Shown here in pieces: positions 5,335 to 62,302 of a stretch of DNA of 64,000 nucleotides (its first letter is position 1; each line of letters opens with the position of its first letter). Source of the stretch: Cliona cf. orientalis (Eukaryota; Porifera; Demospongiae; Clionaida; Clionaidae); NCBI GenBank assembly GCA_963930775.1, contig OZ005689.1, positions 7,107,569 to 7,171,568 of the forward strand, given 5' to 3'. Below the pieces are notes generated by a model, which searched no databases, had not been told where the DNA came from, and worked only from the letters and a program-made list of their open reading frames with translations. Made by a program: the position numbers and the translations under genes.

Positions 5335-5649
5335 GGGTATCAACGAAATGCCCCACTCCCCCCCTCCCGGGTATGGGTGGGGATTTGCCAAAATCTATGG
5401 TTAAAGACGCACCCCCGGGGCCAAATTTTTAGGTGAATCCCCCTGTATAGACCTAAACCCCCAGGTGGGACATCGATACCTTAGGCACAGTAAAACTTTC
5501 TCTTCCGCCATGCTGAACCACCAAGTGATGTATGAATCACGTGTACACAATGAGAAAATCCCCACCCCTGGGGCGGAGCTTTTTGGCAAAGGACGTTCTA
5601 ATCCCCACCCTGTCCCGGGAGGGGGGGAGTGGGGCATTTCATTGATACC
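5335..5649. mobile_element. 315-bp MITE inserted in the Helitron ORF
   Basis: The ends are inverted copies of about 35-40 bp: GGTATCAACGAAATGCCCCA on the left and the complement of GGTATCAATGAAATGCCCCA on the right, followed by a C-rich stretch and CCCGGG. Flanks read TGC on both sides (5332-5334 and 5650-5652), a probable 3-bp target duplication typical of PIF/Harbinger-like elements, with one extra G at the left end. It carries no coding capacity and interrupts the Helitron protein. Confidence 0.75.
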
Positions 5650-27600: not shown

Positions 27601-30600
27601 TAAAATACCTGCTTGCCCATTAAAATAAGCTGTACTTTGAATTAGATATATAACACCAATTTTTGCTTTGTTACTATGTATAAGCAGTGAGCCAGAGCTG
27701 TTTAGATTAGTGGTCTTCATACACATGGCACCACCATCAGAGTCAGCTTTATTTTGTTTGAATATAGTGTTAATAAGTGAAATATTGCAGCATGATGAAT
27801 ACAAAGCACCCCCACGATAAGCAGCATTATCAGAAAAGCTCACTTCTTGAAATAAAGCTTGTTGAGTTGCTGTCATGTACCACGCTCCTCCTTTAGCAAT
27901 TTCCACATAATTTAGACTGAATGAAGAAAATTCGACGAACACGTTACTAACCTGATCTGTGTGTATCACTCCATTCTCACTGGCATTGTTTCTCAGACAT
28001 GATACATTTCTCATTGTGATGTTACCCTGGTAAGCATACATTACTCCACTGTAAGCTGCTTCACTGTGACTGATAATGCTTTGCATGACTGTTATTTGAC
28101 CTTGATAGATAAACCACACCCCTCCTCTGTTCCATGCTTTATTGTAGTCATATCTGTTTCCTGTCAATGTCATGCTAAGCTCGTCAGCATGAATCACTCC
28201 ACCATCATTGCATGCCATGTTGTGAATAAAAATGCTATCTTCATTTATACTTAAATTTCCTTGATAAGCATTGATAACTCCTCCATTATTTGCATTGTTT
28301 CCATAAAAAGAACATTCTGTAATGCTAGCAACATTTTCTTGCATATAAAATACTCCTCCATCATTAGCAGCAATGTTACTGTGAAAAGAAGATCTTGAAA
28401 GAATAATGGTGCTTTGGTGTGCATAAACAACACCTCCATCATTCCTGGCATTATTATTTTCTAATTTGCATTCTGATATTATACTTTTGCTTCTTTGACT
28501 CATGAATAAAACTCCTCCATCATTTGTAGCAGTATTACTGTCAAAGAAAGATATTGAAAGAGCAATGTTGCTTTGGTATGAATAAAGAACTCCTCCATCA
28601 TTCATGGCATAATTGTGTTGAAAATTACTTCCTGAAATCGTTACATTACTTTCAATTATGTGTAAAACTCCACCATCATTGTCTGCTACATTATGACTGA
28701 CAATGCCTTGTACGACGGTTATATGACCTTGAGAGATAAACCACACCCCTCCTCTGTTCCGTGCTTTATTATAGTCATATCTGTTTCCTGTCAATGTCAT
28801 TCTAAGCTGGTAAGCATGAATCACTCCACCATCATTGTATGCCATGTTGTGAACAAAAATGCTATCTTCATTGATATTTAAACTTCCTCGATATAGATTA
28901 TTTCCACCTAAAAGCCCTTCATTTTGTTGCATATAAATAACTCCTCCATCATTCATAGCAATGTTACTGTGAAAAGAAGATCTTGAAACAGTAATGTTGC
29001 TTTGGTGTGCATAAACAACACCTCCATCATTCATGGCATAATTATAGTGAAAATAACTTTCTGAAATATTTATGCTACTTTTACGATCAGTTGTGTATAG
29101 AACTCCGCCATTATTGTCTGCTGTATTATTTTCACATAAACTTCCTAATAAGTGTAAGTCTCCTGAAGTGACATAAAACAATCCGCCATTGCCACCTGCA
29201 GAATTGGCAAGAAATGAACAGTTAGCACTAAATTGAAATTGGAATCCTCTAAGAAACACGATTCCTCCATTTCCATTTGCCCTGTTGTTGCTAAACATAG
29301 TTTCAGTTATGCTCATGGTTGCATTATCCAAATTTAGAGCTCCACCATCTCCACCAGCTTTATTGTAGTCGAATGAGCTGTTTTGAATAACAAGTGAACC
29401 TCCACTAAGGTATACACTTCCACCTTTAAAGGCTCTATTACCACTGAATTTGCTTCCAATAATTAGCAAATAAACCCATTTGTACCCGCCATAAATAGAT
29501 TTTGCGTGAAGGGATAAAGTACCACCACCAAGCCGTGCCACATTGTTGATGAACTGGCAGTAAGCGATTGTTAAGTAGATACCATCAAATGCATACAGAA
29601 CTCTACCATTATGAGTGTCACGTGAAGCACTATTGTTGTTGCCATTGAAGTAACTATGAGCAAGAGTTATATTGACATTATTATTTGCATGAACTACTCC
29701 TCCACAACCATAAAAATGTTCACCTGGTCTAACAGTACTTGCTTTGCACAAGTGACTGTAAATGATATACTCCGCAAACAAAACTCTTGGACTACTGTTG
29801 TTGGTGAATACACTGTGAGCAATCTTTAAGTGTGAATTATTTTCTATGCTGATAATTCCTGATGCACTGTTGTTGGTGAATTGACTATGAGTGATAGTTA
29901 TACGGACTTCATTATCTCCAATTATAAGTCCACCAATATTATTAAAAAAATAACAGTTAGTTATTGTTACAGTAATCCTATATTTGGCATAAACAATTCC
30001 ATTCCGTCCAAGATCAACATAACTATCAAGAAGACTGTTGTTGATGAACTGACAGAATGTAAAAGTTATTTTAACATTTCTTTCAATGCTAAAAGCTCCA
30101 GAAGTAGCCAACTCAGGATCTCTCTCATGCGCAATAGTGTCAATGAACCGACTTTTTGCAATGCTTATGATAACATCACCATATGCCCGTATGACTCCTC
30201 CTTCCCACTGAGATTTCATACCATTAAAATAACTGTTTGTGATAGTTATGTTGACATAGGACTGAGCATATATAGCTCCACCACTCATTTGAGCACTATT
30301 GTTGATAAACTGACTATTTTCAATAGTAAGTGTGGTATTAACTGCTTGTAAGGAAACAATTGCACTCCATGGCCAGTTGCATGAAACAAACACGACTCCA
30401 CCGCACAAGTGTCCCTGCGCAGTATTGTTTGTAAATTGGCTATCCTGAATAGTAATAGTGACACCACTATCACCATACAAAACACCACCTCCTCTTGTAC
30501 AACCATCTCGCACATATTCATCATATCCAATAATATCATAATTATTGATGGAATTTTCTGAGAAAGATGTGTTAATAATAATGATATCACTGCCAAAATC

Positions 30601-31296
30601 AGTAAATATTGCTCCACCAAGTTTTGCACTGTTTCCTTCAAAAACGCTGTCTATGACTGTGACATTACTCCTCGCTGTTGCTACAATAGCTCCACCAACC
30701 TGTGAATGGTTACGAAGATTCATCACGTAGTGTGATTTCTTCCCACTATTACGATAGAATGTCGACCTTACAAGCGTTGCAGATGTCTGAAAAAATTCTA
30801 ATGCTGCCCCTTCAATGAAGCTTGAGTCCTCAATCACAAACTGACAAACACCCATAGCCTTGCTTTCATTGCATTCAATAAATGTTAAATTAATCACAGA
30901 AACTGCAATTACTCTTTCAAACTTAAATTTTCCAGAATGGTTGCAGTTAATTACAACCGTGTCACCACTTAAAGAATTAGTGATATTTGAATGCATAGAT
31001 ACCGTGTTAATGGCAATGATCGAAAGTTCCAAATCAAGATGGTGATTTCCTGGTAAGAAGATCAGCTCGATGCTAGAATTCTTCAATTTGTTAGTGCTGT
31101 TGGCTAATTGCTGGAGAGTAAAACAAGGTTCAGTAGGACATGAATTACTTGATGAGGGCTTGACATAATAATATGTTGTGGACTGGCCCACCGCATTGTG
31201 GGGAACTACAGACTCGCTCAGCCTATTTGAGAGGCTCAAGCACAGAAGTAAGAAAAGAGGCACTGATTTAAATTTCACTTCAGACTTGAACTTCAT
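24652..31296 (-). CDS. Giant beta-helix (Pmp-like repeat) multi-pass membrane protein
   Basis: An uninterrupted 2214-residue ORF starts at ATG 31296; upstream in-frame codons have no ATG. Residues 1-30 form a signal peptide (VPLFLLLCLSLS). About 40-1390 contains dozens of repeats of the type NDGGVIYA..S.ITVSRSSF..N.A, the GG[AGV][IVL]/FxxN pattern of polymorphic-membrane-protein parallel beta-helices. A Cys-rich juxtamembrane part follows (CPIGFEKH, CKCVCHSK, GADAQCADGHSGILCGTC, SLSVGSSRCIPC). Residues about 1745-2130 hold eight or nine hydrophobic segments with RYWTGLLLFARVLLYI. An approximately 85-residue cytoplasmic tail contains TYSVVELP. It is likely a large cell-surface adhesion or receptor protein; its ligand is unknown. 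Two tracts (about 27900-28400 and 28600-29000) are recent internal duplications. A decayed paralogue is at 57024-62302. Confidence 0.9.
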   Translation of the reverse strand: MKFKSEVKFKSVPLFLLLCLSLSNRLSESVVPHNAVGQSTTYYYVKPSSSNSCPTEPCFTLQQLANSTNKLKNSSIELIFLPGNHHLDLELSIIAINTVSMHSNITNSLSGDTVVINCNHSGKFKFERVIAVSVINLTFIECNESKAMGVCQFVIEDSSFIEGAALEFFQTSATLVRSTFYRNSGKKSHYVMNLRNHSQVGGAIVATARSNVTVIDSVFEGNSAKLGGAIFTDFGSDIIIINTSFSENSINNYDIIGYDEYVRDGCTRGGGVLYGDSGVTITIQDSQFTNNTAQGHLCGGVVFVSCNWPWSAIVSLQAVNTTLTIENSQFINNSAQMSGGAIYAQSYVNITITNSYFNGMKSQWEGGVIRAYGDVIISIAKSRFIDTIAHERDPELATSGAFSIERNVKITFTFCQFINNSLLDSYVDLGRNGIVYAKYRITVTITNCYFFNNIGGLIIGDNEVRITITHSQFTNNSASGIISIENNSHLKIAHSVFTNNSSPRVLFAEYIIYSHLCKASTVRPGEHFYGCGGVVHANNNVNITLAHSYFNGNNNSASRDTHNGRVLYAFDGIYLTIAYCQFINNVARLGGGTLSLHAKSIYGGYKWVYLLIIGSKFSGNRAFKGGSVYLSGGSLVIQNSSFDYNKAGGDGGALNLDNATMSITETMFSNNRANGNGGIVFLRGFQFQFSANCSFLANSAGGNGGLFYVTSGDLHLLGSLCENNTADNNGGVLYTTDRKSSINISESYFHYNYAMNDGGVVYAHQSNITVSRSSFHSNIAMNDGGVIYMQQNEGLLGGNNLYRGSLNINEDSIFVHNMAYNDGGVIHAYQLRMTLTGNRYDYNKARNRGGVWFISQGHITVVQGIVSHNVADNDGGVLHIIESNVTISGSNFQHNYAMNDGGVLYSYQSNIALSISFFDSNTATNDGGVLFMSQRSKSIISECKLENNNARNDGGVVYAHQSTIILSRSSFHSNIAANDGGVFYMQENVASITECSFYGNNANNGGVINAYQGNLSINEDSIFIHNMACNDGGVIHADELSMTLTGNRYDYNKAWNRGGVWFIYQGQITVMQSIISHSEAAYSGVMYAYQGNITMRNVSCLRNNASENGVIHTDQVSNVFVEFSSFSLNYVEIAKGGAWYMTATQQALFQEVSFSDNAAYRGGALYSSCCNISLINTIFKQNKADSDGGAMCMKTTNLNSSGSLLIHSNKAKIGVIYLIQSTAYFNGQAGILNNSGSFFILQSNVTFLGSISFINGSELMEPKFYIGVMELYNIPAKIQQGGALTIIKSSITFSGTCTMTDNHADDGGAIHATESKIYVNGEIVVTRNKASNNGGGVYLHTSELFCERNGSLQLSNNFANESGGGIHAIGSTIRVNGGKSALELDTSRTTNILDCSLCFTDNHADNGGGLYLDENAKIHLYIDNFRPSTYPFAFINNSANYGGGIYISDNPCGPIYNYQYITNRLSDPCFIPNITINKNMIFFLENNCALTSGSSLFGEMLDQCKTPQLSKYPAMDNQTCDQPNEIVNITSFLKNISNIELSDLGTEPHQLCFCQGGKFDCSSEHDDIRVRKSKKFSVEVVAVDRINHPVNATIHSLLATTEGGLGDDQEYQNTSKVCTKLVYNIFSPNDQEELILYLVKNCRTSDSILSQRRLTIKFTACDSCPIGFEKHVDDDTSCKCVCHSKLKQYIENCNASTEMLERKRNVWISYLNTDDNFTSGYLIYPYCPLNYCLPPTSKVEINLNIPHGADAQCADGHSGILCGTCRKNLSLSVGSSRCIPCRTHWPKMLAILLGISLAGIALVTVLLMLNLTVAIGMLNGILFYANIVAANGSTYMPFSTPNFTTIFISWLNLEIGFDACLFEGMNPFWKTLLQLAFPTYVIFLVLLIIIISNYSTKFTWLLAKKNPVATLATLILLSYTKYLNTIIATFSYIVLEYPDGSHRKLWRPDATVEYLRGKHIILFIIATLILIVGIAYTSLLFSWQWLLYYQDKKFLKWTKNQKLGHFLEPYHAPYNFRHRYWTGLLLFARVLLYIISAVNITGDPHMPLVMTIILITALHLIGRLWVDMLYKKRLLEVMEVIMYVNIIALASLTLWNIDDSSKNQTAVVYISVTVTFVLTITVIIFHMFYYTRLLSFVKSIALKFKSARHQVEDDIISNREYHQPLITYSVVELPKLAVDEASEEENELHVSTRSDNITTASDTARVQGLADQEL

Positions 31297-31534
31297 GACC
31301 ACTAGCAAACCTATCAATGATAGAACTTGCGAGGATACAAATTGGTGTGTGTGCAACAGCTGCAGGTGATTATGATCACAGTAGCTATATTATTATTGAT
31401 GATGTTCTTTCCAGTTCACCGTTCAGCACAGAAGACAGGTTTTGATCAGTATTTAAATAGACTCTCACGCAAATTCGGACTACATAATATTGGATTACCA
31501 ATTTCATGGAATGATGTAGAATTGAAATAAATAA

Positions 31535-33989: not shown

Positions 33990-36900
33990 TGTTACGTCAA
34001 TAACTACAGTCCCATCAATAACTACAGTCTCAATAGTCACTACTGTCTACTACAGTACCACCAGTCTCCATTGTCACATCAATAACTACAGTCTCATTGG
34101 TCACTACTGTCACATCAGTAAGTACAGTCCCATTGGTCACTACTGTCACATCAGTAACTACAGTCTCAATAGTCACTACTGTCAACTACAGTCCCACCAG
34201 TCTCCACTGTCACATCAGTAACTACAGTCCCACAAGTCTCTACTGTCACATCAGTAACCCATTGGTCACTACCGTCTCATTAGTAACTGCAGTCCCATCG
34301 GTCACTATTGTACGGTGGCCGAGAAGGACACTGCCGCGGCGGCCAAAGCCGCCGTGGGCCGCCCAAAAGCCGCCATGGGCCGCCAAAGGGCCGCCCATCG
34401 GCTGCGGCTGGCCGCCGCGGCTCAGCCGCTCCCGCCAATCTGTTTGAAAATCGATTGTCTAGCTTACAACTAGTTAGTTAGACTATTATCCCGCACGCAT
34501 GCGCAAGCGGTCAGTTAGTCAGTCTGTCTTTGTCATCGCCCGCACGATATGCATTGGCATCTGGGCACAATGGGTTATAACGCCGATCAAATATAACAAA
34601 GAAACGGACTCGGTCTCGATCGATACTGGGTACAGGGGCTAAAATATTTGTTGGACACTCCTATCAACCGCGTGCTTTCTACCCATGCGCACGCAGTACT
34701 GATTTACCAGACCACGCCCACCGCAGCGTTTAAGCGCGCGCTCCATATCTGCTAAGCACGAGAACGATCACCACCGATAAAGAACGGGCGGTATACATCA
34801 CATAAACCTTTCCCTCTCAATTGCCCCCCACCACAGCGTTTAGTTATTAGCTAATACCTTTTCTCTGACAAAAAACGCGGAGGGCTGAGTTCCCGAGTAA
34901 ACGTAATGACACACCTAACTATGGTGACCTAACGTTGTCCAGTTAACCATTCGTGAACCGAATATCGATTTTAAATAATTGGCGGGCGCGGCTGAGCCGC
35001 GGCGGCCAGCCGCAGCCGATGGGCGGCCCTTTGGCGGCCAACGGCGGCTTTCGGGCGGCCCCAACGCGGCCTTGGCCGCCGCGGCAGTGTCCTTCTCGGC
35101 CACCGTACTATTGTCACATCAGTAACTACAGTCTCAATAGTCACTACTGTCAACTACAGTCCCACCAGTCTCCACTGTCACATCAGTAACTACAGTCCCA
35201 TTGGTCACTACTGTCACATCAGTAATTACAGTCCCATTGGTCACTACTGTCAATTACAGTCCCACCAGTCTCCACTGTCACATCAGTAACTACAGTCCCA
35301 TTGGTCACTATTGTCACGTCAGTAACTACAGTCTCAATAGTCACTACTGTCATCTACAGTCCCACCAGTCTCCACTGTCACATCAGTAACTACAGTCCCA
35401 TTGGTCACTATTGTCACATCAGTAACTACAGTCTCAATAGTCACTACTGTCATCTACAGTCCCACCAGTCTCCACTGTCACATCAGTAACTACAGTCCCA
35501 CAAGTCTCTACTGTCACATCAGTAACTACAGTCCCATTGGTCATTACCGTCTCATTAGTAACTGCAGTCCCATCAGTCACTATTGTCACATCAGTAACTA
35601 CAGTCTCAATAGTCACTACTGTCAACTACAGTCCCACCAGTCTCCACTGTCACATCAGTAACTACAGTCCCATTGGTCACTACTGTCACATTAGTAACTA
35701 CAGTCTCAATAGTCACTACTGTCAACTACAGTCCCACCAGTCTCCACTGTCACATCAGTAACTACAGTCCCATTGGTCACTATTGTCACATCAGTAACTA
35801 CAGTCTCAATAGTCACTACTGTCATCTACAGTCCCACCAGTCTCCACTGTCACATCAGTAACTACAGTCCCATTGGTCACTATTGTCACATCAGTAACTA
35901 CAGTCTCAATAGTCAATACTGTCATCTACAGTCCCACCAGTCTCCACTGTCACATCAGTAACTACAGTCCCACAAGTCTCTACTGTCACATCAGTAACTA
36001 CAGTCCCATTGGTCATTACCGTCTCATTAGTAACTGCAGTCCCATCAGTCACTATTGTCACATCAGTAACTACAGTCTCAATAGTCACTACTGTCATCTA
36101 CAGTCCCACCAGTCTCCACTGTCACATCAGTAACTACAGTCCCACAAGTCTCTACTGTCACATCAGTAACTACAGTCCCATTGGTCATTACCGTCTCATT
36201 AGTACCTGCAGTCCCATCAGTCACTATTGTCACATCAGTAACTACAGTCTCAATAGTCACTACTGTCAACTACAGTCCCACCAGTCTCCACTGTCACATC
36301 AGTAACTACAGTCCCATTGGTCACTACTGTCACATTAGTAACTACAGTCTCAATAGTCACTACTGTCAACTACAGTCCCACCAGTCTCCACTGTCACATC
36401 AGTAACTAAAGTCCCATTGGTCACTACCGTCTCATTAGTAACTGCAGTCCCATCGGTCACTATTGTCACATCAGTAACTACAGTCTCAATAGTCACTACT
36501 GTCAACTACAGTCCCACCAGTCTCCACTGTCACATCAGTAACTACAGTCCCACAAGTCTCTACTGTCACATCAGTAACTACAGTCCCATTGGTCACTACC
36601 GTCTCATTAGTACTTGCAGTCCCATCGGTCACTATTGTCACATCAGTAACTACAGTCTCAATAGTCACTACTGTCAACTACAGTCCCACCAGTCTCCACT
36701 GTCACATCAGTAACTGCAGTCCCATTGGTCACTATTGTCACATCAGTAACTACAGTCTCAATAGTCACAACTGTCAACTACAGTCCCACCAGTCTCCACT
36801 GTCACATCAGTAACTGCAGTCCCATTGGTCACTATTGTCACATCAGTAACTACAGTCTCAATAGTCACTACTCTCATCTACAGTCCCACCAGTCTCCACT

Positions 36901-37560
36901 GTCGCATCAGTAACTACAGTCACATAAGTCTCTACTGTCACATCAGTAACTACAGTCCCATTGGTCACTACCGTCTCATTAGTAACTGCAGTCCCATCGG
37001 TCACTATTGTCACATCAGTAACTACAGTCTCAATAGTCACTACTGTCAACTACAGTCCCACCAGTCTCCACTGTCACATCAGTAACTACAGTCCCAATGG
37101 TCACTATTGTCACATCAGTAACTACAGTCTCAATAGTCACTACTGTCAACTACAGTCCCACCAGTCTCCACTGTCACATCAGTAACTACAGTCCCATTGG
37201 TCACTACCGTCTCATTAGTAACTGCAGTCCCATCGGTCACTATTGTCACATCAGTAACTACAGTCTCAATAGTCACTACTGTCAACTACAGTCCCACCAG
37301 TCTCCACTGTCACATCAGTAACTACAATTCTGATTCTGTCTCCACTGTCACATCAGTAACTATAGTCCAGTCAGTCACTATTAACTATAATAATAATATT
37401 ATTACAGTCCACTACTGTCACATCAGTAACAAGATTCCCATCAGTACTAGTCCCCACCATCACTTCTGTTTAATTATTACAGTCCCACATGTCTAAATTG
37501 TCACACTGGCAGTGGCTAACTACAGTCCCGCCTGTCTCCACAGTGTGTGCACCATGAGTG
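33990..37560. repeat. Minisatellite of GTCACATCAGTAACTACAGT-type units
   Basis: Short units built from GTCACTACTGTCACATCAGT and ACTACAGTCCCAYTGG-like blocks are combined into higher-order repeats of about 100 and 172 bp. The array is interrupted at 34311-35107 by a TIR element. Long frames are open on both strands because unit lengths are mostly multiples that avoid stops; composition (T/V/S or T/V/D/E only) argues for satellite, not exon. A stray copy lies at about 38425-38475. Confidence 0.92.
34311..35107. mobile_element. 797-bp GC-rich TIR element in the minisatellite
   Basis: Arms of about 130 bp start TACGGTGGCCGAGAAGGACA and are rich in CGGCGGCC. The right arm is the inverted copy ending at 35107. 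CTATTG flanks both ends (34305-34310, 35108-35113), and neighbouring units show the single-copy site CACTATTGTCACATC. The 6-bp duplication could be read as 7 bp if the terminal A is excluded. The interior has no recognisable gene. Confidence 0.88.
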
Positions 37561-39829: not shown

Positions 39830-40040
39830 ATGAACAGACTACTTTCTCAACAAAAAATTGTAGCTTGTTCAGGCTCACCCCAATATACTGCACATACGAC
39901 GTATGTGCAGAACGTAATGTGAATCTTCTAGGGAGAGGATATCAACCTCCAACGGTACTAGCGTATCCTCAGAGGTTGATATCATCTATATATATATACA
40001 TTAATCATAGTATATTGCAGTCACATAAACTAGAGCTCAC
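39830..40040. repeat. Segmental repeat flanking exon unit 1
   Basis: Shares CTTGTTCAGGCTCA, CTGCACATACG, GAGGATATCAACCTCC and AACATTGA.CATAG-like blocks with 42910-43060 and 45055-45200. Each of these three copies lies just left of one of the 135-nt exon units. Confidence 0.6.
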
Positions 40041-40043
40041 ATA

Positions 40044-40549
40044 CCCCGCGCGCATATTGTGCAATCTATAGATTTACTTTCGGTGCATGGCTATAATTTT
40101 GTAAACTTCAAAGAAATAGAAATGCTGCTTAGCCTTTCCGTGACACTTGAAAATGCACTCCCTGCACCCAGACCTACATTATGATTGGTTACAGATTTCA
40201 GTCACTGTAGACATCACGAGCATTATTTAGAACACCGACGATCTTTACGAGCCTTGTGCTTGGCCACTTAGTTGTGTGCATGAGCAGAAAGCACAATTGG
40301 TATGCATATGCATTGATGGGCACTGTCGATAGGCGTGGCTACTGTGGCCAACAAAAAGGCACTATTTGTGACGCTTATGGACCGTATCCCTCGATTTTAC
40401 GCACACTGAAGCCAGTTTTTCGCCAAACTCGATTGATTCGTTGTGATTACGAGTCGCTTAGACGTCTATAACTCGAAAAAAAAAAGATTTTTGTGCTAAC
40501 GATAACGACAACGACTGATTACTTCACCCCCTTGCGCATGCGCGCGAGG
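40044..40549. mobile_element. TA-flanked MITE with CCCCGCGCGCA ends (copy 1)
   Basis: Ends CCCCGCGCGCATATTG and the complement of CCTCGCGCGCATGCGCAA are flanked by TA (40042-40043, 40550-40551). A second, longer copy is at 46701-47548. Shared interior includes GGCACTGTCGATAGGCGTGG and CGACAACGAC repeats. Confidence 0.78.
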
Positions 40550-40582
40550 TAATTATGTGTTCAACTAAGTCTTCAAACTCAC

Positions 40583-43689: not shown

Positions 43690-44460
43690 GTACAGTGCAC
43701 ATGCGCAGATGAAACCAACACCCTCAGCTATTATGGTGTAGACCACACCCCTAGCCTCGTCCCCAGGCCCCTCCCAATGCTGGAAGAAGGGCCTGGTACA
43801 CACCGACTGCGCATCCGCCACTTTATCCGTAGATTTTCTGTAAAATTGTCCGTATACTATAGCTTACCTTGTGGCAATTCGATAGCTTGCTCAAACAGGT
43901 GCCAGGGTAAGTCTTTTTACTTTTGCTGGCCAGCCAACTGCTCGAATAAATTTTTTGAGCTAGCGTTGTGCATTCCTTGGCCATACGTAAGCAGAAAGAA
44001 AGGATGACGTTATCTTAAATATTTAGTATACTGAATATTTTACGATGTATCCAGATTCTGGGTACAAATTGGTGCATGTGCAATTGGTGTGTACCAGGCC
44101 CTTCTCCCCACGTTGGGAGGGGCCTGGGGACGAGGCTAACCACACCCCTCACTGCAGGCTGCTCAAACTCACCATATAATGGCGACGTTCTCACTCTGCT
44201 CTAACGTCGAATCTACCACCAGACCATGACAAAGAGCAGATATCGCCTCTCACTTCGCTCGAGGCTTGGTGGCCTTTTGAGCAGGCCTGTCGAAACGCGC
44301 GGCGCCGTTCGAGTTCGAGAATGCATCTCTATGGCGCCTAGACCTGGCAACCTTGTATGTGCACACGGCATAATTCTGACTAATCGTGAGTCTTCTGAAC
44401 TTGTAGGAGAGCGCATCTTTTATGCCCTCCAGATAATTAGGACACGGACTATAATATAAG
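43690..44460. repeat. Direct repeat, copy 1 (contains element B)
   Basis: Aligns with 44510-44960: ATGCGCAGATGAAA, TATGGTGTAGACCACACCC, TGGCGACGTTCTCACTCT, ACCAGACCATGACAAAGAGC and CGCCTCTC.CTTCGCTCGAGG. A third, inverted partial copy is at about 55565-55710. Open frames inside are conserved only as repeat. Confidence 0.7.
43752..44138. mobile_element. 387-bp MITE with TAGCCTCGT ends (element B)
   Basis: Ends TAGCCTCGTCCCCAGGCCCC and its complement are followed by matching AGAAGGGCCTGGTACACACC blocks. The 10-bp ACCACACCCC is duplicated (43742-43751, 44139-44148). The second repeat copy retains the empty site (GTAGACCACACCCTCACT), confirming insertion. It is related to elements A and C. Confidence 0.9.
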
Positions 44461-46078: not shown

Positions 46079-46700
46079 CTAAATTTAAAGATGATAGTCA
46101 ATGCATACTCAAACAACAAATTTAATCCATGGAGGCTTGGGACACAGTTATATGTAGCCTCGTCCCCAGGCCACTCCCACGTTTTCAATGTTGCACGCAG
46201 AAAAGGGGAAGGCCTGGTATCAGAAATCACGTGACAAACGTCACGCGTATGAAGGGTGGTCGAAGGGTGAAAATTAAGTGTGGGCAGCTTAGCAACAATC
46301 ACACTTTCTTGCCCACGCAATTTGTAGATCATGGTGGGATCAATGCGAGAATTTGAAGAACAGAGCGGCAAGACCAGAATACGGCGCCCCCTCGGACTGT
46401 CCGACTGCTGTAAGCGTACCAAGGAGTAGCCCGACTATTTGTAGCTTGCTACCATCGGTGAAATAATGCAACGTTGTGCGTAGTTTTGAAGAACTGATAT
46501 CGAGAAGTCTCAGCAGATAAGTTTAGCCATAGGTAGCTACATTTAGCTCAGTGTTCTATTAATAATAGATTGTCAACTAGCTCACCTAGCGTTAATCTTA
46601 CTATTGAACCAATACTGTATTACCCGATATTTACTAGAACTCTTCATCTTCATCACAAATTTCTATAATAATTTATAACTAGAGCTCTATAGAGCACATA

Positions 46701-47548
46701 CCCCGCGCGCACATTGTGCAATCTATAGATTTACTTTTGGTGCATGGCTATATATTTTGTAAACTTCAGAGTAATACTCAGACTTCAAACTTCAGAGTAA
46801 TACTCAGACCTATGATGCTGCTTACTAAGCCTACTGGAGGTTCCGGTGACACTTGAAAAAGTGCTCTCTACACCCAGACCTAGCCAAAACTAGGAACATA
46901 TGAATTTCTACTTAGCTATATTTGTTGTAACAATAGTAGTACAGTATAGCTGTCTTACACTATGATTGGTTTCAGATTTCAGTCTTCACGAGCATGATCT
47001 TTATCAGTTAGGGGGCTCCTTGTGGAAAAATTAGCGTCATTATGACGTTAGAGGGGGAGGGGGTCTTAGTCCATGACGTTATGCAAATGCATTGCTAGAA
47101 AAGTGGGCGAGACTCGTAAAAAGGGGCGTGGCTAACCGAACTGCTGTGACGCTAAGAGGAGGGGGGGAGGGGGGTAAAAAGTTAATGTCACAATGACGTT
47201 GATTTTTCCACACGGACTTTGGACAAGCCCCCTTACATGCTTGGCCTTTTAGTTATGCGCATGAGCAGAAAGCACAATTGGTATGCATATGCATTGATGG
47301 GCACTGTCGATAGGCGTGGCTACGGTGGCCAACAAAAAGCCACTATTTGTGACGCTCGTGGACCGTATCCCTCGATTTGACGCACACTGAAGCCAGTTTT
47401 TCGCCGAATTCGATTGATTCGTTATGATTACGAGTCGATTAGACCCCTATATCTTGAGATATGGCGATTTTTGTGCTAACGACAACGACAAAAACAACGA
47501 CAACGACGACACGACCGATTACTTTACCCCTTGCGCATGCGCGCGGGG
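46701..47548. mobile_element. TA-flanked MITE, copy 2, nested in element C
   Basis: Ends CCCCGCGCGCACATTGTG and the complement of CCCCGCGCGCATGCGCAAG. TA flanks (46699-46700, 47549-47550). Aligns with 40044-40549 over most of its length and itself contains the 222-bp element at 47011-47232. Confidence 0.75.
47011..47232. mobile_element. 222-bp MITE nested in a MITE
   Basis: Left end GGGGGCTCCTTGTGGAAAAA and right end (complement GGGGGCTTGTCCAAAGTCC...) continue into inverted AACGTCATTGTGAC-like blocks. TTA is duplicated (47008-47010, 47233-47235). The MITE copy at 40044 lacks it, giving an empty-site reference. Contains repeated TATGACGTTA motifs. Confidence 0.75.
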
Positions 47549-47680
47549 TAATAATTATTGTAGTACATAATATGACATCACTAATGATTTAGTCTAAATA
47601 TAGTAACTGCACATGTGCCTCGACCTGGGCCCTAATCTACACTGTGCTAGCTAGCTACTTGTTGGTCTTTAAGTGACAGC

Positions 47681-50541
47681 ATGGCTGAATCAGAATCAGC
47701 CAAGTGGTTGAAAAGTAGGTACATGGTTGGCCCACCAATGAAGATGGTAAAATTTTCTAAGATCCACAATGAACTGGTAGCTCGTTTTACCCACACGAAG
47801 TTCAATTCTCTTGCTGTATCTCAAGCAATCAAGGAGGCATTTCCAAACACTGAGAGTAAACCTTGTGGGAAAGCTAACCATCGCTTTGTGTTTGGTCTTC
47901 AAGAACAAGAATCCACGTCTAGATCTTTCCATGATTCTTCAAACCACGAGTTAATGGCAACACTTGAGCATGAAAGGATGAGAAACCGAGATCTACAAGC
48001 ACAATTGGTCATGATGGAGAAGAGGGTTCATGAATTAGAGGCGAAGGTGCGGGAATTGGAGGCAATTACGTGTACACCAGAAATTCTTGATGATCAGATG
48101 AATCGAGCTATGAATCCTCGCTTTCAGATCTATCATGGTCCTGACAGCTTTGATCACTTTGATGATTTCTGTGTGGAGCGTATGATAGAGGAGGTGAAAC
48201 AGCAAGCACCTGACGTCCTCCGACTCTTGTCTATGCTTGGACGAGCTCCTTCACTGACCGATGCACCTAGAGTTAAAGATATGGAAACAGTCAGCTAGTG
48301 CATTATGTGCCCTTGCCAAAGGTAGATCAGAAAAGGTATTAGGCATACAGCTTCTTGTGGGTCTTATGCTCATAGCCGGGTCAACACACAGACAAGTAAG
48401 TATATAGGTACATGTATTCTCAACATAAGAAATATTATCAAGTTCACTGTTGTGCTACAGGCTCTGGGTGTCCTGAATCATGCAGGCATCACTGTATCAT
48501 ACAGTACTGCTTGGCCGTACCTCAATAAGCTCATATCTGATGCAAAGTTTACTGATAGGATACACAGTGGTAGAATGCTATGGGCATATGATAATCTCAG
48601 TATACATAAATCAGTACGCCACGAAAGAGAAGGTACATATAATACGTACAGTACATGTACAGTGCATGTATATTCACTGCAATATCATGCAATACACACT
48701 CAAATTCACTTATCTTTTCCTGTCTTTCAGATAAGCACAATTGCATGCTCAATGTCACATCACGTCTCGCAGTTAGGCTACAGAATCTCCCTAATTGGAA
48801 TTTTGATTGGGCAGACTTACAACCCCAGTGTACCCGTCAGTCTCTCAATATCTCTGACTTCTTGCCGAGTTTAGAAGATGCTTGTCATCTGAAGGAGAGA
48901 GCCACAGCCTTCTTTATGAAGTTCCTTGCTGAAGAATTTGATAGCCTGTCTGATCTTCAGCTCTTTGTCCCCAAACATCAGTCACCACACCCAGTTCAAA
49001 AGTCAGAAGTCATACCTATGAAAGTTTTGTTTAAAGATGAAAAATACATTAGTGAAACCGTAGACATACTGTCACAATTGATGATTGATGCAAATATCAC
49101 TGGTAGTCCACATGTAGGTAGGACATAATATAAATGTACGCAGAATTCATATTCAGGATATTCAATTGTTACTGTAGATAGTAGTGGGAGACCAATTGAC
49201 GTGCAAATGCATTAGGGGAGCAAAAGTGTGGCGGCAAGCAGAACAAGAGCCTAAAGATACACTTTCATGGGCAAATGAAATCCCAGGTAAAGTGCATATC
49301 AGTACATGTTACATGTACTGTACATAGTGTACGTGGAACTTCTCACAGTACTACTGGGCTTTAAATAGATACTTACCTTGAGTGCACTTCATATTACATG
49401 TGTTTATATATGCACTCTAGACTCGATCCACGTGGTACACACGTACACTCTAGCTGTTTAATTATATTACAGGTGATTTCCATTTTTATGGGAGTGTCTA
49501 AAGGTAATCTTTGAAATATTTTGGAGCTCACCATCTCAACAAGGATCACTATGCAATTTGAGAGAAATTATTCAACGTAATCAGGTAGACAAAGCTGCAA
49601 AAGTGTTTAGTGTTGCTGACGAGTTCTTAGTCCATGTTTTCAAGGCTCATTTGAGTGTGAGTGTATGCACATTGCTAAAACTACAAAGCACGTCAGATGC
49701 AATCAGTCATGAGGCTACAGAAAGGTGGTTAAGGAAAACAGCCGAAACACTCTTGGCTGACACAATCATGCCAGTTCAAGCATCAGATCCTGTTTATACT
49801 TTTCATAGATCACTCCTGCACTTGGGCTTTCTATACTATGATCTAAGGGATGCAATACGATGGGAGGATGGTCCACAAATAATCCAGAACTGGGTTCTTT
49901 GGTTACCTCGCTTTCTAGCAACAGGGAAGAAGAACTATGCATATGAGGCTGTCAACCTCATAGCCAACCTAAAAGCTGATTTTCCAAAACACATTGCCTA
50001 TCTGGCTATTCATAACAGGACGGTCAATATCGGAAGGAAAGGCAGGAAGGGGAAAGCCCATCAATCAAATGGTGGAACATTATAATTTGTAAGTACCCCC
50101 ATTAATAATTACAATTATAACTTGTTTACATGTGCATACCTTACTTTGAAGGAAGCAGTAAAGGGAGGCAATCAAACAGAGAAACATCTGGAGGTGGTGT
50201 CACTTGGTGCACTGTTTCTACTGGACGCTGCCAAGAAAGCTGACAAGGCATTCTGTGTTTCACCACCTGGAGGAAAACACACAGTTAGAGAAGCATGCAG
50301 GGATATAAAAACAATGGCAAATCATCTCTTGGAAAAGTCGGTGTCAACTAACCTTGAAAATCGATCTTCCCCTGAATTTTTAAACCCTGATGATACTGGA
50401 CTAGACAAATTAACATCTACTTGGCTACATGAAGCTTTATTCAGGGCATACATAGATGAAGATAGTCCGTCATCGGAACCAATAGACGAAGACCTTGAGC
50501 AGAGTGCCAATATCCACTATGAAATTGCTGATGTTTCCTAA
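47681..50541 (+). pseudogene. Putative transposase-like protein of element C (DUF6589-like), frameshifted
   Basis: Starts at ATG 47681. Residues 1-75 resemble a winged-helix DNA-binding module (KFSKIHNELVARFTHTKF, SLAVSQAIKEAFPNTE), and about 90-130 is a coiled coil (MEKRVHELEAKVRELEA). Later exons encode LGVLNHAGITVSYSTAWPYL, WAYDNLSIHKSVRHERE, LPNWNFDWADLQPQC, ADEFLVHVFKAHLSV and FHRSLLHLGFLYYDLRDAIR, ending at 50541. The arrangement recalls proteins with the DUF6589 domain; that name is from memory of similar sequences. Two single-base shifts seem present: a short T-run near 49487 (before WECLKVIFEIFW) and near 50035 (before KPINQMVEHYNL). No certain DDE motif could be assigned. Confidence 0.65.
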
Positions 50542-50676
50542 CTAATATTATTATCATATACTTCTTCTAAGTACATGTATACATGCACTTAATGGTGTCC
50601 TGTATGAAATATACACCTTTGGAATCACAAATTTAATCATTATTAGCACATGGTACACATACAAACATTGACAGTA

Positions 50677-52685
50677 CTACTGCTTCCTACATCGTTTAGC
50701 AGGTGGAGCATCTCTTAAAGTGTTCAGGACAATATTACCGAGTCTCTTTCTGTACTCAGGGCGGATTCCAAATAGATTTATGTCCTTTTCGGTCCGATAA
50801 AATTTTAACTCATTGATAACAAAGTTCGAACATACATACAAAACCTGCTCCAAGCATCATATATGGTGGGTTCTCTCCCATAATTCTACTCCTTTCGTAC
50901 AACAGATTTTCTTTCAAATTTTTTTGAGTGCATCATCCACTTGTATAACCCAAGGGTGTAGACAGGTGGGGCCCCCCCCCACTTTTTGAGCAATAATTAT
51001 GTACTATATATGGGATTGTTGAAGTTAGATGAAATTCTAGTTGTATTCACTGTAATCATAGTTGGATAGCCAAAAATATGCAACAAATTTGGGAAATAAT
51101 TGCTGGAAATAGCTGAATTTAGTTCTGGACACAATAGGATCAAAAATTTTCGCGCGCTTTGCGCGCAGTTGTCACAAAGCCCCCCCACTTTACAAATTGT
51201 GTCTATGCCCTTGTAACCGCAGTACGTCGGGTTTTACTCTCCTTAGTCCGACCTTCAACAAAGAGTATTTCACAATAAGAAGTAACCTGCTGCTATCTTC
51301 ATTGCGGCAATATTTTTCAAGCAGCGAGTCCTTTATTTTGGATTTTTTGTTCGCAGTGTAAAATAAATGAGCTCTAGCTTCCGATCCATTTCTGCCTGCT
51401 CGTCCACATAACTGATTAAAAACAAGATGGATATAACATCCAATAATTACAGTAACTATGTATACACATGTACCTGATAGAACTGAGAAATTGTATCTGG
51501 CATACCATACACAATTACAAGACTTACATCAGGGATATAATTTAAATATATATGAAAGTGTAACTTGTTCGTGAATTATTATTGCAAATTACCATTCTGA
51601 ATGCCACTGTAGCTGTCAATACTCTTAGTGAAGAATTCTGTGCAAATTCAACTGTCTTGGAGTTCCTAGTCATTGAGGCATGATACATCCCCACAGATTG
51701 CTTGTTCTTTGCCGTGCTCTTAAGGCATTTGTACACTTTGCATACATTATTCTTCGTCTGGCAAAATATTATAGTTTTTGGGATTTGTTCAGGCTCACAT
51801 GACTCAAGTTTCGACAGTACACCAGCCATATCGTGCTGTGTTTATAAAAATTGTTACAATTACATATCTATAACTTACATTTACACTTCTTATGGGGCTA
51901 GCCGACAAAAAAAATGTTGGCCCTATCTAGCGACTGGGATACAACAATAGGATCCTTTAAGTGCAGAGATTCAATAATTTTTGATTGTGTATTGGCTGGA
52001 GCAGATGCAATCAATGCCATAAAAGGAGCATTGGTCAACGCTCTGAGACCACCCAGCTTATCAAATGCCGTTCTAAAGTCATGACCCCTATGTACACACA
52101 GTGGTAACATCCAATTTCAGGGACAGAAACTAACCACTCATATACACAATGAGCTTCATCTATAGCAACCAAAGCCAGCTGAAGATCAGATGAAAATATA
52201 CCCCGCCATGGTCGACTTACGGCTGTCTCAGGGGACATAAAGTCTACAAGAAATTCAAGTCAGCAATACATTGTTGTTATAAGATGCATAAACACACCAA
52301 ATTAATAGATCCTATCCAAAACAGAGGAATATTGGTCAGGGCAAGTTGCATGCAAAGCGGTAACACCGGCAATATGAAGTTGATGGACCTGAAAAGCCAC
52401 AATGGATATGATAATGCCCACTGCAGAGCTACCAGATGCTAAGGGTACCAGGTACATACAGAGACTCTTCCCTGAACCAGTTGCCATCCTAACAAGAACA
52501 TCCTTCTTGTGGAGTGCTGGTAGTACAGCATCAAGCTGACCAGGTCGAAATGATGCATACTTAAAATACTTTTCCAGAGCAAAACTGGCTTTCTCCTGAG
52601 CACCACACTGCACACCAGTCTCATCAGAGCTCGTGCCCCATGGGCACTCTTCAATGTTGCAAACAAACTCCAGCTGATCGCTCAT
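50677..52685 (-). CDS. RecQ-like DNA helicase of element C
   Basis: Spliced minus-strand gene from ATG 52685 to a stop at 50677-50679. Motif 0/I: FRPGQLDAVLPALHKK then MATGSGKSLCMYLVP. Motif II: VAIDEAHCVYEW. Motif III region: APFMALIASAPANTQ. Motif IV: KTIIFCQTKNNVCKVYKCL. Motif V: LRVLTATVAFRM, where most relatives have AFGMG. Then YGMPDTISQFYQ and motif VI CGRAGRNG (near 51390). The C-terminal exon ends LFGIRPEYRKRLGN. A MITE at 50951-51215 sits in the last intron. This is a superfamily 2 helicase likely unwinding DNA during transposition (inference). The Arg in motif V and Ser in motif III may reduce activity. Confidence 0.8.
50951..51215. mobile_element. 265-bp MITE in the helicase gene
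   Basis: Ends AAGGGTGTAGACAGGTGGGG and the complement of AAGGGCATAGACACAATTTG, followed by G7-8/C7-10 runs on both sides. It lies between the exon with motif VI and the last exon. Confidence 0.6.
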
Positions 52686-53247
52686 TTTTAATTCAAAACG
52701 TTGACAGGCCCGCCAAAAAAGTCAACCACATGATGAAACAAGGACTCAGAAATTTTAGCTCGTGTGGCAGCCTTTTTTCTTTTTATCATACATATAAAAC
52801 TACTCCGTTACAGCGTATGCTATTCATAACAGGACACCATTCTTTTTTACCCTTAGTATCTTACACAACAAACAGTACACTCACCAGATATGCTAGACTC
52901 ACAAGAGGCAGGCCGTCGAGATCGACGCGAGTCAACTCTCCCTACCTCAGTCATTTCACGTTATCCACTTCTTGCGCCTCCTTTTAGACACCATTCCCAA
53001 ATCTTCAAAAAGCAACAGAACTCGTGTTCGCGGCAACTCCGTAGCAAGCTCTGTAGGTACGCATGCGTGGGCGAATCACCCCACAAAGCGATTCCGTGAC
53101 CTGATACGCCTACGCTCATTATTTATGACATTTGTCACGCGACTTCTGATACCAGGCCTTCCCCCTTTTCTGCGTGCAACATTGAAAACGTGGGAGCGGC
53201 CTGAGGACGAGGCTAAGTTATATGATGATCAACTGCATCAAACTCAC

Positions 53248-57023: not shown

Positions 57024-60000
57024 TCATTTGCCACCACATTCAGCTGATTTAGCTGATACACTCTCTGGATTGCAATTGGCTCCTTCAGGGTGTTGTGGTG
57101 GCTCCACCACTGAGAACGTTGGCTCCACTGGAGAAGGTCCATGCAGTGGTGTTGTATCATCATAGTCACCAGAGTCAAGCTCATCCAGTAGCTCATGATC
57201 ATCAAACCTGCGACTATCATCATCATCAGGTGGTGGACTATATATATAGCGACGAAGTCTGGGCTTTGGTTTTGAATCAGTATCAGTAAAGAGTCTGTCC
57301 ATTTTCCTACCAAGCATTGTCCTCTTGATTTTTGAGAAGAGACTGGTGTACGTGTACACATGACAGAGAATGATGAGCAGAAGAACTACGATTGTGATGA
57401 TGACCGAAGTGTAGGCGATGGCTTCTTGATGAATTCGTTCTTTATCAAGAGCATATGAACTGAAGACTGTGAAAAATAGGACATTTAAGCAGAAAAATGT
57501 CTCAAGCACCTCAATTGACCATTTTCTGTACCTTAGATTTACAATGAATGCTTTAAGAAGAACAATACAGCACACGACAAAAGTTACAGCTGTGAGTGCA
57601 ATGATTGGATTATTTGAAACATTGACTGCAGCTACAAGGTACAAAACTATTCGAGCGATCAGTAGCAGTCCAGTCCAGTATCGATGCTTAGGAGTGTAGG
57701 GCAAGTGGTAAGTTTCAATGAAAGTCTGTATCTTTGGATTCCTTGACAACTTGAAAATCCTCCACTTTGGAAGATGGAGGAGCCACTGCCAGGAGAAGAG
57801 AAGAGCGGTGTAGATCAGACACACGAGGAGAATGAAAACAGCTGTAATGAATAGAGGTATGTGCTTTCTAGATAGATATTTGATAGTTGCATCAGGGAGC
57901 CACATGTGTAGTGTTTCATTTGAGCCGTAGGGATACTGGAGAATGCCGACTGTTAAAGACCTAAAGCAAACTTCAACAAGCTTAGCATAGGAGAGTAAGA
58001 TCAGTGTATCCAGAGTTGCCACAGGATCCTTCTTTCCAATAAGGTTAGAAAATTTGGTAGAGTAGGAGCTGGCGATGATAACTGAGACCACGAGAAAAAT
58101 GATGTAGGCAGGAAAAGCCAACTGTAGCCATGTTTTGATGTAAGTGTCCATTCCTGAAAAGTAGCAGGTGTCAATACCCAAGTCCAAATTAAGCCAAGAG
58201 ATGAATACAGTGATGAAGTTTGTCTCTTCAAATGGAAGCAAAATACTTTGGTATGCATACACAACATTGGCGTAAAAGATCAGTCCATTTAGAGTTCCAA
58301 CTGCAACAGTCATATTTAGTAGGAGCAATAAAGTCACCAGTGCTATACCAGCTAAGATTGCAGCTATTGTGATGACTATGAATAGTACAGGCCAGTAACC
58401 AGGACATTGGAGACAGCGTGAACTACCAAGAGAGAGGCTGTGATCTGATTGGCAAGATCCACACAAACGAGATGAACGATTGAAGGCACACTGAGCATCA
58501 GCTCCATGCGGTTGATTGAGGAAAAACGGTGGATTGGTTGATAAGCAGTAGTCAAAAGGACAGTTGGGGTAGACTAAATAACCAGATAGACCTGTGTTGG
58601 ACTCATTGATGTAGGAAATCCAGGCTCTGGAATTATTTTTGACAAGTGATCCATCATGACTGTCACATCGTTCCATATATTGACTGATATCGCTGTGGCA
58701 TTCACATGTACAGTTTGTATTGTTCATTCCCACAACTTGTAATCCAATTAGACAGCTGCAAGGGAGAAAGTTTATTTTTACTGTTGCCCTGGATAATTCG
58801 ACGTTTCTGCATGGACCATCTGAAGCATAGAGAGCTAAAGTTTCCGAGTCATGAGGAGAGACAACATTGAACGTGAAATCCGTGCAGTTGGTAGATATAT
58901 TCTTAGATAGCTGTCCTTCACTTAGACCACTCTCGGCCGAGCTAAGCGAGGCTTGGATGGTTGCACTAACAGGTTGGCCGACCTGATCAAGAGCAATAAG
59001 TGACACTGTAAATGCTTCGCCTTTCTTAACCTCCTTATTAAGCTTGCGATCTTGGTCTGTACAGTCGTGTATAGTAGAGCTAAAATTAGTACAAAAGCAA
59101 ACTCGGACTGGACCTGAAGATATTGAAACATTTGCTATAGTGGAAACATTCTTGAAGTAAGCAATTCCTTCTCTATTGCCTCCACCTGTATTGTTGTCTA
59201 TGTCAAATTCTGCAAACTGACTCACAGCACATCTGTCTAGTAGTCCTCCATAGAGAGTGGAACCGGAAATATTGGCTGAATTGTTAGAGAAATACATGGA
59301 GCTCGAGTTCAATAGATTCGTACTAGGATTATTGTTGAATTTACTATAGAGAGCCAGCACTTGAAAGAAGCATTCTGTTCTAGGATCACTAGCACATGTA
59401 CCAGAGTTGGTATCATCATTCACATACACTGCTCCACCATACTCTGCACTGTTGCCAGTGAATTTTGTTGTGTTTGCATCATTTTCATCACTAGAAGTAA
59501 TATTGTACTTTAGGATATAAAATTTTGCATTGGCTTCAAGTGATAATCCACCTCCAAGCTTTGCTGCATTATTTATAAAATTTATTCTTGCACCAATATA
59601 TCGACTATATCGAGGGGTATCAATATAAATGGTTAGAGAATTTGCCTTGATTGATGAGCTAATGGCATGAATCCCTCCACCTTTATTTGCTGCAGTATTA
59701 CCATGAAGTACGAAGATGCTTCTTGGTTGACAGTATAGTTCACTAGTTGATTCGAGGTAGACACGTACCTCCTCCATTTTCAGTGGCTGTGTTTTGTTCT
59801 ATAGTTACATTACCATTCACATAGAGTTTGCTCTCAGTGGAATATACTGCTCCGCCATTATAAGCTTGGTTGTGTTGAAGACTGCACTCTCCATCAATAA
59901 ATACATTACTCTGAAATAGAGTTATTGCACCTCCTTCTTCAGTAACATTTGGTTGGTTATTTACAAATGTGGTGATGCCACGGAAATTCATCTTACTGTT

Positions 60001-62302
60001 AACAGCTACTAGTGATCCAAAATTGTTTGAGAATGCGAAATTTCCTGAGTCATTTCCTCTGAATTCAGAGCCAGATAAATATATCACAGAAGAACCCGAG
60101 TTCTTATCAATCAAAAGATGGTTGTGGTATTTTATTCTATTGTTCTCTTCTGCAAAAATAACTGCTCCTCTAGGAGAGCTATTGTCAGTGAAATTACAAT
60201 TCCCTACCATAATAGTGCTATTTTGAGACGACAATACTCCTCCCAAGTCGGCACAGTTTCTATAGAATACACTTCCTTCTATTGCGATATTACTCCCGGT
60301 GGAATAAAGTAAACTAAATTGAGACGCAGAATTGTTATAAAATTCACTTGCTTCTATTGTGACATAGCTGTTGAAAAGGTAAAGTACACTATATAAAGCG
60401 GCAACATTATCATGAAATTCACTTGCTTTTATTGTGATGCTACAGCGGTAAGGATAAAGTACGCCACCTCTATTGGCACTAAATTCACTTGTTTCTATTG
60501 TGACAGAGCTGTTGACAAGGTAAAGTACACCAAGTCCACTGGCAAAATTATCATGAAACTCACTTGATTCAATCATCAGTGTACTTGCGAAGATCCCTAG
60601 TACAGTAACTCCATTCTTAGCATTATTATTAGATAATGTGCAGCTTGAAATTATTGTCATAACACCTGTGCTGGAATACAGTACTCCTCCAGAACTATCA
60701 GCAGAGTTATTAATAAATGATACATTATCAGTCAAGTTAATTACGCTGTAGTTATCTGCAAATAGCGTAAAACCTCGACTATCGGCCATGTTTTTCGCCT
60801 CCGGGCGTAACTTCAAGTAGGAACGGTTCTAGACTCTACTTCAAAGACCTACAGACTGGTCTTATGGAGCTCTACACAGTGATATAAAAATAATGTACCT
60901 TTGAATAGCAGACACGGTGCACCGATCTCCAGAAACTCCTGTTCGCTGGCCTGTATTATCGATAACCACCAGGTATTATCGGCTGTACATACACATGCAG
61001 TACAATTATTATCGGCCAAATCGAGCCTTTTTGTCTGTCGACTCTTACCTGTTCAAAATTGCCACTCCTGGTCAACAGTACTGAAACCAGCAGGTGTGAT
61101 TACCCTTTACCAATTTCAACCAACTCGTTCTATGCAGCATTACTGAGATACAGTGAAAACGAGCTATGAATAATCATTACTCCATTGTATACAATACATT
61201 TTATGATTGATAATGACATGATATAAATGCTAATATTAACTTCGGCGTTGCTCTCTGGGGTTCATATGAGTACTGTCTCCTTTCTTCTGATCTGGATAAA
61301 AGTAAGTCAAGTGTCTAATATCAGATTAGGCGATGTAGCTAGCCTCCAGCCCTCACGATCCACCACCATTCAGTACGCCATGTTACGCCCATTCAAATTG
61401 GTTCAACACCATTCTATACCCTTCTCTCCCTTGTATTTAAGTTGTAGAAGTAAGTTAAGCCTACCTGGTAGCTTCAAACGAGTCTAAAACCTCTGATCCA
61501 GTCTTCGAGCATAAACGGAGCTCCGCATCATCTTTGTAAATTTTCCGTATAAACGCGTAAATGTCCGTAAAATATAGGTCGATAATCGATGTACGCTCGG
61601 CCGATAATACAAGTCGGCCGATAGTCGAGGTTTTACGCTATAGCTCCACCGATGTCTGCTTTGTTGTCTTCAAACTTGCTTTGGCTAATAGTGACAGTTG
61701 TACTATTGGTGGCAATAACTGCACCACCAACAAATCCATTTTGGAATGTACTTCCTGAAACATCCGCAAAAACTTTGACAGATTCCCTGTAAGATCCTTT
61801 TAAATTTGACACAAAAGTGCAGTTAACAATCTGTGCTGTTGTTTCAATTAGCTAGTTCCAGTGCTGTTCCACTGTTCTCTTGACCCTCAAACGTTGTATC
61901 CGTGACAAGAAACTCCTTAACTTGTGTTATTTGATTTCCTCCGCATCCAATAAACTTCAGATCAGTGATATAAATACTCTGTGACTGACTAAAGTGCATA
62001 CTTGAGTCATTTGTACATTTGATTAGTGCCGCTGAGTTCTCAGATTTCATCGTAAAATTTTTCATATTTGACAGTGTCAGGTTGACATTGCTGAGGTGGT
62101 GTGTTCCAGAGAGGAAGATCAGTGTGGTGTTGTCTGAGTGGAGATAACGGCTCGAGTTGGCAGCAAACTGGGAGAGGGTTAGACAATGCGGCTGCACAGT
62201 GCAAAGGTCATTAGAATTGACTGTGATGTAATAGACTTCACCAATCACTCCGTTTAGAGAGCAGAGGACAGCCAATAGCGTCAAGAGTCCAAAGTGACCC
62301 AT
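57024..62302 (-). pseudogene. Beta-helix multi-pass membrane protein (copy 2, disrupted)
   Basis: Paralogue of the 24652-31296 gene. ATG 62302 gives a signal peptide (MGHFGLLTLLAVLCSLNGVI). The frame is lost by one base near 61852, continues with GGAVIATNSTTVTIS, and is cut at ADIGGAI by a MITE (60765-61638). It resumes FADNYSVINLTDNVSF with beta-helix repeats, and shifts at 59770 by four extra bases (ACGT). From there to the stop at 57024 the frame is intact: beta-helix end, GADAQCAFNRSSRLCGSC, SLSLGSSRCLQC, eight or nine transmembrane segments with RYWTGLLLIARIVLYL, and a tail with PTFSVVEPPQ. The beta-helix is shorter than in copy 1. It could still be transcribed, but a full protein is unlikely. 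Confidence 0.85.
60765..61638. mobile_element. 874-bp TA-flanked MITE inside the beta-helix pseudogene
   Basis: Ends GCGTAAAACCTCGACTATCG and its exact complement, TA on both sides (60763-60764, 61639-61640). Collapsing the insertion to one TA restores the codons for GGAIFADNY, matching GGAIFTDFG in the intact paralogue. CGGCCGATAAT motifs recur near the ends. Confidence 0.92.

What the first reader, a model, noticed from the sequence alone, without database searches (positions are those of the whole stretch)
46155..53215. Intact-ended 7-kb DNA transposon encoding a RecQ-like helicase and a winged-helix/coiled-coil protein
Seen: about 90-bp inverted termini, a 9-bp target duplication with empty sites in the same array, a helicase gene with motifs I-VI and a convergent gene starting with a winged-helix-like module. 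Helicase-encoding cut-and-paste elements are rare. The helicase-bearing Academ lineage is the nearest I recall, but the partner protein is little characterised. Either this is a member with a recognisable DNA-binding partner or a new lineage.
Basis: partly seen in the sequence, partly recalled or inferred. Interest (0 to 1): 0.85.

Follow-up and report, generated by a model that had tools for sequence, protein, structure and literature searches.

The report
Decayed helicase-carrying AcademH-type DNA transposon
This is one worn-out copy of a cut-and-paste jumping gene that carries its own DNA-unwinding enzyme; it fits a kind of transposon described in 2020 (AcademH), and its relatives in the same genome point to a protein family of unknown function as the transposase.

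Summary
The element at 46155-53215 has ~90-bp inverted termini and a 9-bp target duplication, and sits in a 226-bp tandem array with empty sites. Three other long copies found here carry both genes between such ends; 21 short (387-543 bp) copies share the ends. Of 25 distinct paired copies, 22 have exact 9-bp duplications, 2 have 8 and 1 has 10. The helicase is RecQ-like. The partner gene (six inferred exons, at least 797 codons in copy L032) encodes a predicted winged helix, a coiled coil and Pfam DUF6589, with two acidic positions invariant where alignable (19/19 and 21/21 loci). I infer it is the transposase. In 24 of 26 DUF6589 loci a RecQ-like ORF lies convergent to it. A helicase plus 9-10-bp duplications is what PMC10045372 gives for AcademH (the defining paper, Kojima 2020, is not held). 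So: a new member of a known kind, not a new lineage. Host unnamed.

The parts
46155..46243 (+). left terminal inverted repeat, begins TAGCCTCG
53126..53215 (-). right terminal inverted repeat
46146..46154 (.). 9-bp target site duplication AGTTATATG, left copy
53216..53224 (.). 9-bp target site duplication AGTTATATG, right copy
47681..48395 (+). partner gene (DUF6589, inferred transposase) exon 1: winged helix then coiled coil; 4-bp frameshifting insertion near 48293
   Evidence: exon limits by comparison with L032
47681..47899 (+). winged-helix module (residues 1-73)
47933..48064 (+). coiled-coil helix (residues 85-128)
48461..48632 (+). exon 2, holds first conserved acid (YDN, about 48590)
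48731..49112 (+). exon 3, start of DUF6589
49178..49286 (+). exon 4, holds second conserved acid (GDQLT, about 49190)
49473..50088 (+). exon 5, main DUF6589 body (ORF 49558-50085 hits DUF6589 3.6e-11); 1-bp frameshift difference near 49483 against L032
50152..50541 (+). exon 6 to stop; 10 bp missing at its acceptor against both other copies
50677..52685 (-). RecQ-like helicase gene with introns; 64-bp loss near 52404, ~100-bp loss near 51288, and a nested insert
46674..47553 (.). nested repeat insertion (~880 bp), absent from L031 and L032; relatives at window 40031-40553 and in L022, L026
50951..51213 (.). second nested insertion (approximate limits) in the last helicase exon, absent from L031 and L032; no relative among held sequences
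43752..44138 (.). 387-bp non-autonomous copy with the same termini, 10-bp TSD ACCACACCCC

Best explanation
A decayed member of a two-gene cut-and-paste DNA transposon family of the AcademH type. The DUF6589 protein would be the transposase. Its winged helix binds the ~90-bp termini, its coiled coil pairs the two ends, and an RNase H-like active site (acids in YDN, GDQLT and probably the D...EH.N motif) cuts the ends and joins them to target strands 9 bp apart, giving the 9-bp duplication. The element's own RecQ-type 3'-5' helicase would open or clear strands at the ends or in the joined product. Shown: termini, TSDs, copies, gene content, domain matches, a winged-helix model, signs of purifying selection, co-divergence of the two proteins in relatives. 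Inferred: catalysis by DUF6589, the roles of winged helix and coiled coil, the helicase step. This copy itself can no longer encode either protein whole.
For: Exact TSDs of 9 bp in 22 of 25 distinct paired copies, 8 in 2, 10 in 1. Both genes between the ends in all 4 long paired copies found. DUF6589 4-410/410, E 3.1e-51, in spliced L032. RecQ in the relative L058: TIGR00614 E 1.5e-46 (159 bits, under its cut-off of 219.8), RecQ_Zn_bind 3.9e-9, WRN structures 4e-29. Convergent RecQ-like ORF at 24 of 26 DUF6589 loci, against 0 of 23 MITE loci, 70,860 bp. Co-divergence: Mantel r 0.84, 0 of 5000 permutations as high, 15 loci of the sister group; r 0.83, 1 of 24 orderings, 4 loci of the window's own group. 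D1 19/19, D2 21/21 loci. pN 0.17-0.41 against saturated pS 0.79-0.90 in 7 exon pairs. A distant family (L044/L045) ends TAGTCTCG with 9-bp TSDs in 2 of 2 copies. AcademH = helicase plus 9-10-bp TSD (PMC10045372 passage).
Against: No published AcademH sequence could be compared; Kojima 2020 is not held. No RNase H fold was shown for DUF6589: profile searches of solved structures gave nothing useful and no fold model of this domain was made. The third acid is not settled: acid at column 234 in 24/26 rows, at 275 and 279 in 23/23. Two of 26 DUF6589 loci (L052, L053) show no helicase in the held 1.5-kb flank. Selection on the helicase was measured only in the sister group (L058/L038, L058/L054). 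Exon joins rest on GT-AG borders and homology, not on transcripts.
Confidence: 0.83

Rival explanations
1. A lineage separate from Academ that independently combines a RecQ helicase, DUF6589 and 9-bp duplications.
For: Academ membership rests on two features read second-hand; no Academ protein was available to align. The term DUF6589 was in none of the 7 papers listed.
Against: Both distinguishing AcademH features that could be tested are met.
Confidence: 0.1
2. A MULE or other 9-bp-TSD transposon that captured host RecQ and DUF6589 genes as passengers.
For: 9-bp TSDs and long TIRs also suit MULEs (recalled).
Against: No MULE or other named transposase domain among the exons scanned with Pfam; the same two genes, convergent, at 24 of 26 loci, with co-divergence and signs of purifying selection.
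Confidence: 0.04
3. KolobokH, the other RecQ-bearing DNA transposon lineage met in the literature search.
For: Also carries a RecQ helicase (PMC9587614 passages).
Against: Kolobok makes 4-bp TTAA duplications and KolobokH is reported only from fungi; here the duplications are 8-10 bp and not TTAA.
Confidence: 0.01

Closest known systems
AcademH (Academ superfamily; Kojima 2020, Mob DNA 11:15; not held; title seen in reference lists, properties in a passage of PMC10045372)
   Same: Helicase-encoding DNA transposon with 9 or 10-bp TSDs, found in animals and fungi.
   Different: Nothing tested differs; transposase and terminus similarity could not be compared.
AcademX
   Same: Same superfamily by PMC10045372.
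   Different: Encodes a nuclease and makes 3 or 4-bp TSDs; neither fits what was found here.
KolobokH / Kolobok-1_CCri
   Same: RecQ helicase beside a DDD/E transposase; in Kolobok-1_CCri on the complementary strand.
   Different: TTAA 4-bp TSD; in KolobokH the helicase lies downstream of the transposase domain; no DUF6589 link known to me.
Pfam DUF6589 (PF20231)
   Same: The partner protein covers positions 4-410 of 410.
   Different: Pfam names it only as of unknown function; here it sits inside mobile elements.

Membership tests
AcademH | encodes a helicase | tested here: met
   RecQ-like helicase in the window copy and relatives
AcademH | 9 or 10-bp target site duplications | tested here: met
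   22 of 25 paired copies 9 bp, 1 is 10 bp, 2 show only 8 exact; 2 of 2 copies of a distant family 9 bp
AcademH | transposase homologous to published Academ transposases | not testable with these tools
   no Academ sequence or profile on hand; paper not held
AcademH | DDD/E catalytic triad (Academ is listed among DDD/E superfamilies, PMC9587614) in an RNase H fold | tested here: inconclusive
   two acids invariant in 19/19 and 21/21 loci, third ambiguous; no fold model of this domain
AcademX | nuclease and 3-4-bp TSD | tested here: not met
   TSDs 8-10 bp; no nuclease among the exons scanned with Pfam
KolobokH | TTAA 4-bp TSD | tested here: not met
RecQ helicase family | SF2 core with RecQ zinc-binding region | tested here: met
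   L058: Helicase_C 7e-12, RecQ_Zn_bind 3.9e-9, TIGR00614 1.5e-46. The L033 piece reaches RecQ_Zn_bind only at 0.016, under its cut-off; in the window copy this region is missing

The most novel reading that the evidence does not exclude
DUF6589, a Pfam family of unknown function, is the AcademH transposase, built in this clade as winged helix + coiled coil + DDE core, and it needs its own RecQ helicase as an obligate, co-evolving partner that shapes how the 9-bp-staggered ends are joined or repaired. This genome, with 122 exon-level DUF6589 matches as a lower bound, is a large expansion of the type.
Probability: 0.5. Interest if true: 0.5.

Novelty: new member of a known kind. Interest (0 to 1): 0.36.

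Why it matters
It would give Pfam DUF6589 a likely function. It also points to a genome with several families, some with recent copies (L031 and L032 98.7% alike; the L044/L045 ends about 99%), in which the role of a transposon-encoded RecQ helicase and its suggested link to the longer duplication could be tested.

Full report
What is there. The element at 46155-53215 is real. Its termini are inverted repeats of about 90 bp (96% over 54 nt and 91% over 43 nt). It is flanked by AGTTATATG on both sides and splits a 226-bp tandem array in which unsplit units match the joined flanks at ten places within 6 edits.

Other copies. The window lies in a 216.8-Mb, 149-contig genome. A search with the 93-base terminus scored 40 of 802 candidates, and 40 matched, so counts are lower bounds. 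Two further full copies, L031 and L032, are 95.3-95.4% identical to the window element in aligned columns and 98.7% to each other. L033 belongs to a related family with 88% similar ends and diverged proteins. Short copies of 387-543 bp share the ends; one lies in this window at 43752-44138. Among the window and L001-L037 I count 25 distinct paired copies (4 long, 21 short): exact TSD 9 bp in 22, 8 bp in 2 (L014, L029), 10 bp in 1 (window 43752). L001-L007, L019 and L034 gave no pair in the held stretch: L001-L006 are single ends of the long copies, L007 and L034 are one lone end, L019 has a worn second end. Repeated fetches of one copy (L021, L026, L035-L037) were counted once, and a spurious long pairing in L023 without TSD was set aside.

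The genes. In L032 the forward gene can be read through six exons with GT-AG borders at all five introns, my own model without transcripts, to 797 codons where I stopped it; the frame runs on for 16 more. It covers DUF6589 positions 4-410 of 410 (E 3.1e-51). The reverse gene is a RecQ-like helicase. Window ORFs hit DEAD (7.3e-6) and, just under the cut-off, Helicase_C, and match RecQ structures. L033 pieces hit DEAD and the RecQ model TIGR00614 (7.6e-16 and 1.3e-12). The relative L058 has a 279-residue ORF with Helicase_C, RecQ_Zn_bind and TIGR00614 (1.5e-46; 159 bits, under that model's cut-off of 219.8; it is a fragment) and matches WRN (4e-29) and 1oyw (2.7e-24, recalled as E. coli RecQ).

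The window copy is decayed. Against L031 and L032 it carries a 4-bp frameshifting insertion in exon 1 and a 10-bp loss at the exon-6 acceptor; against L032 also a 1-bp frameshift in exon 5 that L031 shares. The helicase gene lacks 64 bp that include motif Ia and an intron boundary, and about 100 bp near 51288 that hold the zinc-region cysteines; a separate insert of about 263 bp near 50951-51213 interrupts its last exon. About 880 bp at 46674-47553 is a nested repeat with relatives at 40031-40553 and in L022 and L026. L031 has a 939-bp insertion of its own, and the Walker A of L032 reads GSRKS.

How general it is. DUF6589 gives 122 exon-level matches in this genome, some loci giving two, and rings in 0 of 14 control genomes. 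Of 26 DUF6589 loci examined (L031-L033, L038-L060), 24 have a convergent RecQ-like ORF; L052 and L053 show none in the held flank. Twenty of the 26 were the best-scoring matches and six I picked, so this is not a random sample. The same helicase and DUF6589 queries hit none of 23 MITE loci (70,860 bp, some overlapping). Protein distances of helicase and DUF6589 exon correlate (Mantel r 0.84, 0 of 5000 permutations as high) over 15 of the 26 loci; L031, L045, L050 and L059 were left out as near-duplicates and the rest failed the length limits. All 15 belong to the sister group reading EDWH. A check in the window's own group could use only 4 loci (L033, L041, L047, L049): r 0.83, 1 of 24 orderings as high, the true one. 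In 7 exon pairs pN was 0.17-0.41 while pS was saturated at 0.79-0.90: three pairs of the partner gene involve L032, and the two helicase pairs come from the sister group only. A distant family (L044/L045) has ends starting TAGTCTCG and TSDs GGTAAAGGG and GTTGGCCAC, once I set the right end one base inward of the BLAST limit.

What it is. PMC10045372 (passages) states that AcademH makes 9 or 10-bp TSDs and AcademX 3 or 4, and suggests a link to the helicase and nuclease they encode. PMC9587614 (passages) places KolobokH as RecQ-bearing within TTAA-duplicating Kolobok. The element fits AcademH on both tested features and fails AcademX and KolobokH. The defining paper (Kojima 2020) is not held, so transposase and terminus similarity stay untested. 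What the data add is the tie between DUF6589 and this transposon type, the winged-helix/coiled-coil front end, and the co-divergence with the helicase. The term DUF6589 was in none of the 7 papers, but the defining paper is outside the library.

Mechanism. Most likely: DUF6589 protein binds and pairs the ends, cuts them, and joins them to the target with a 9-bp stagger; the RecQ partner unwinds at ends or intermediates. The stagger is read from the TSDs; the rest is inference from family knowledge.

Noticed in passing
window 602-5391 (-): Pif1-type helicase ORF (Pif1_2B_dom 5e-8) next to a Helitron_like_N ORF (4e-15): looks like a Helitron or its remnant.
   Followed up: partly
window 6634-9333 (-): 899-aa ORF with a reverse transcriptase domain (RVT_1 2e-8), probably a retroelement.
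   Followed up: partly
window 24652-31356, 57024-59777 and 59743-60816 (-): Long uninterrupted ORFs (2234, 917, 357 aa) with repeated short motifs and, by eye, membrane spans; the 917-aa one has no Pfam hit at 0.001, the other two were not scanned.
   Followed up: no
window 35107-37380: Large tandem array with nested 9/18/100-bp periods and strong strand asymmetry (GC skew about -0.3).
   Followed up: no
window 46674-47553; 40031-40553; L022; L026: An ~880-bp repeat nested in the element has related copies elsewhere, so a second repeat family has inserted here.
   Followed up: partly
L031-L060: The DUF6589 loci split by eye into two groups: one reading GDFHF (the window's) and one reading EDWH after the second acid.
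   Followed up: partly
L032 1417-1872: The long copy L032 reads GSRKS in its helicase Walker A motif.
   Followed up: no
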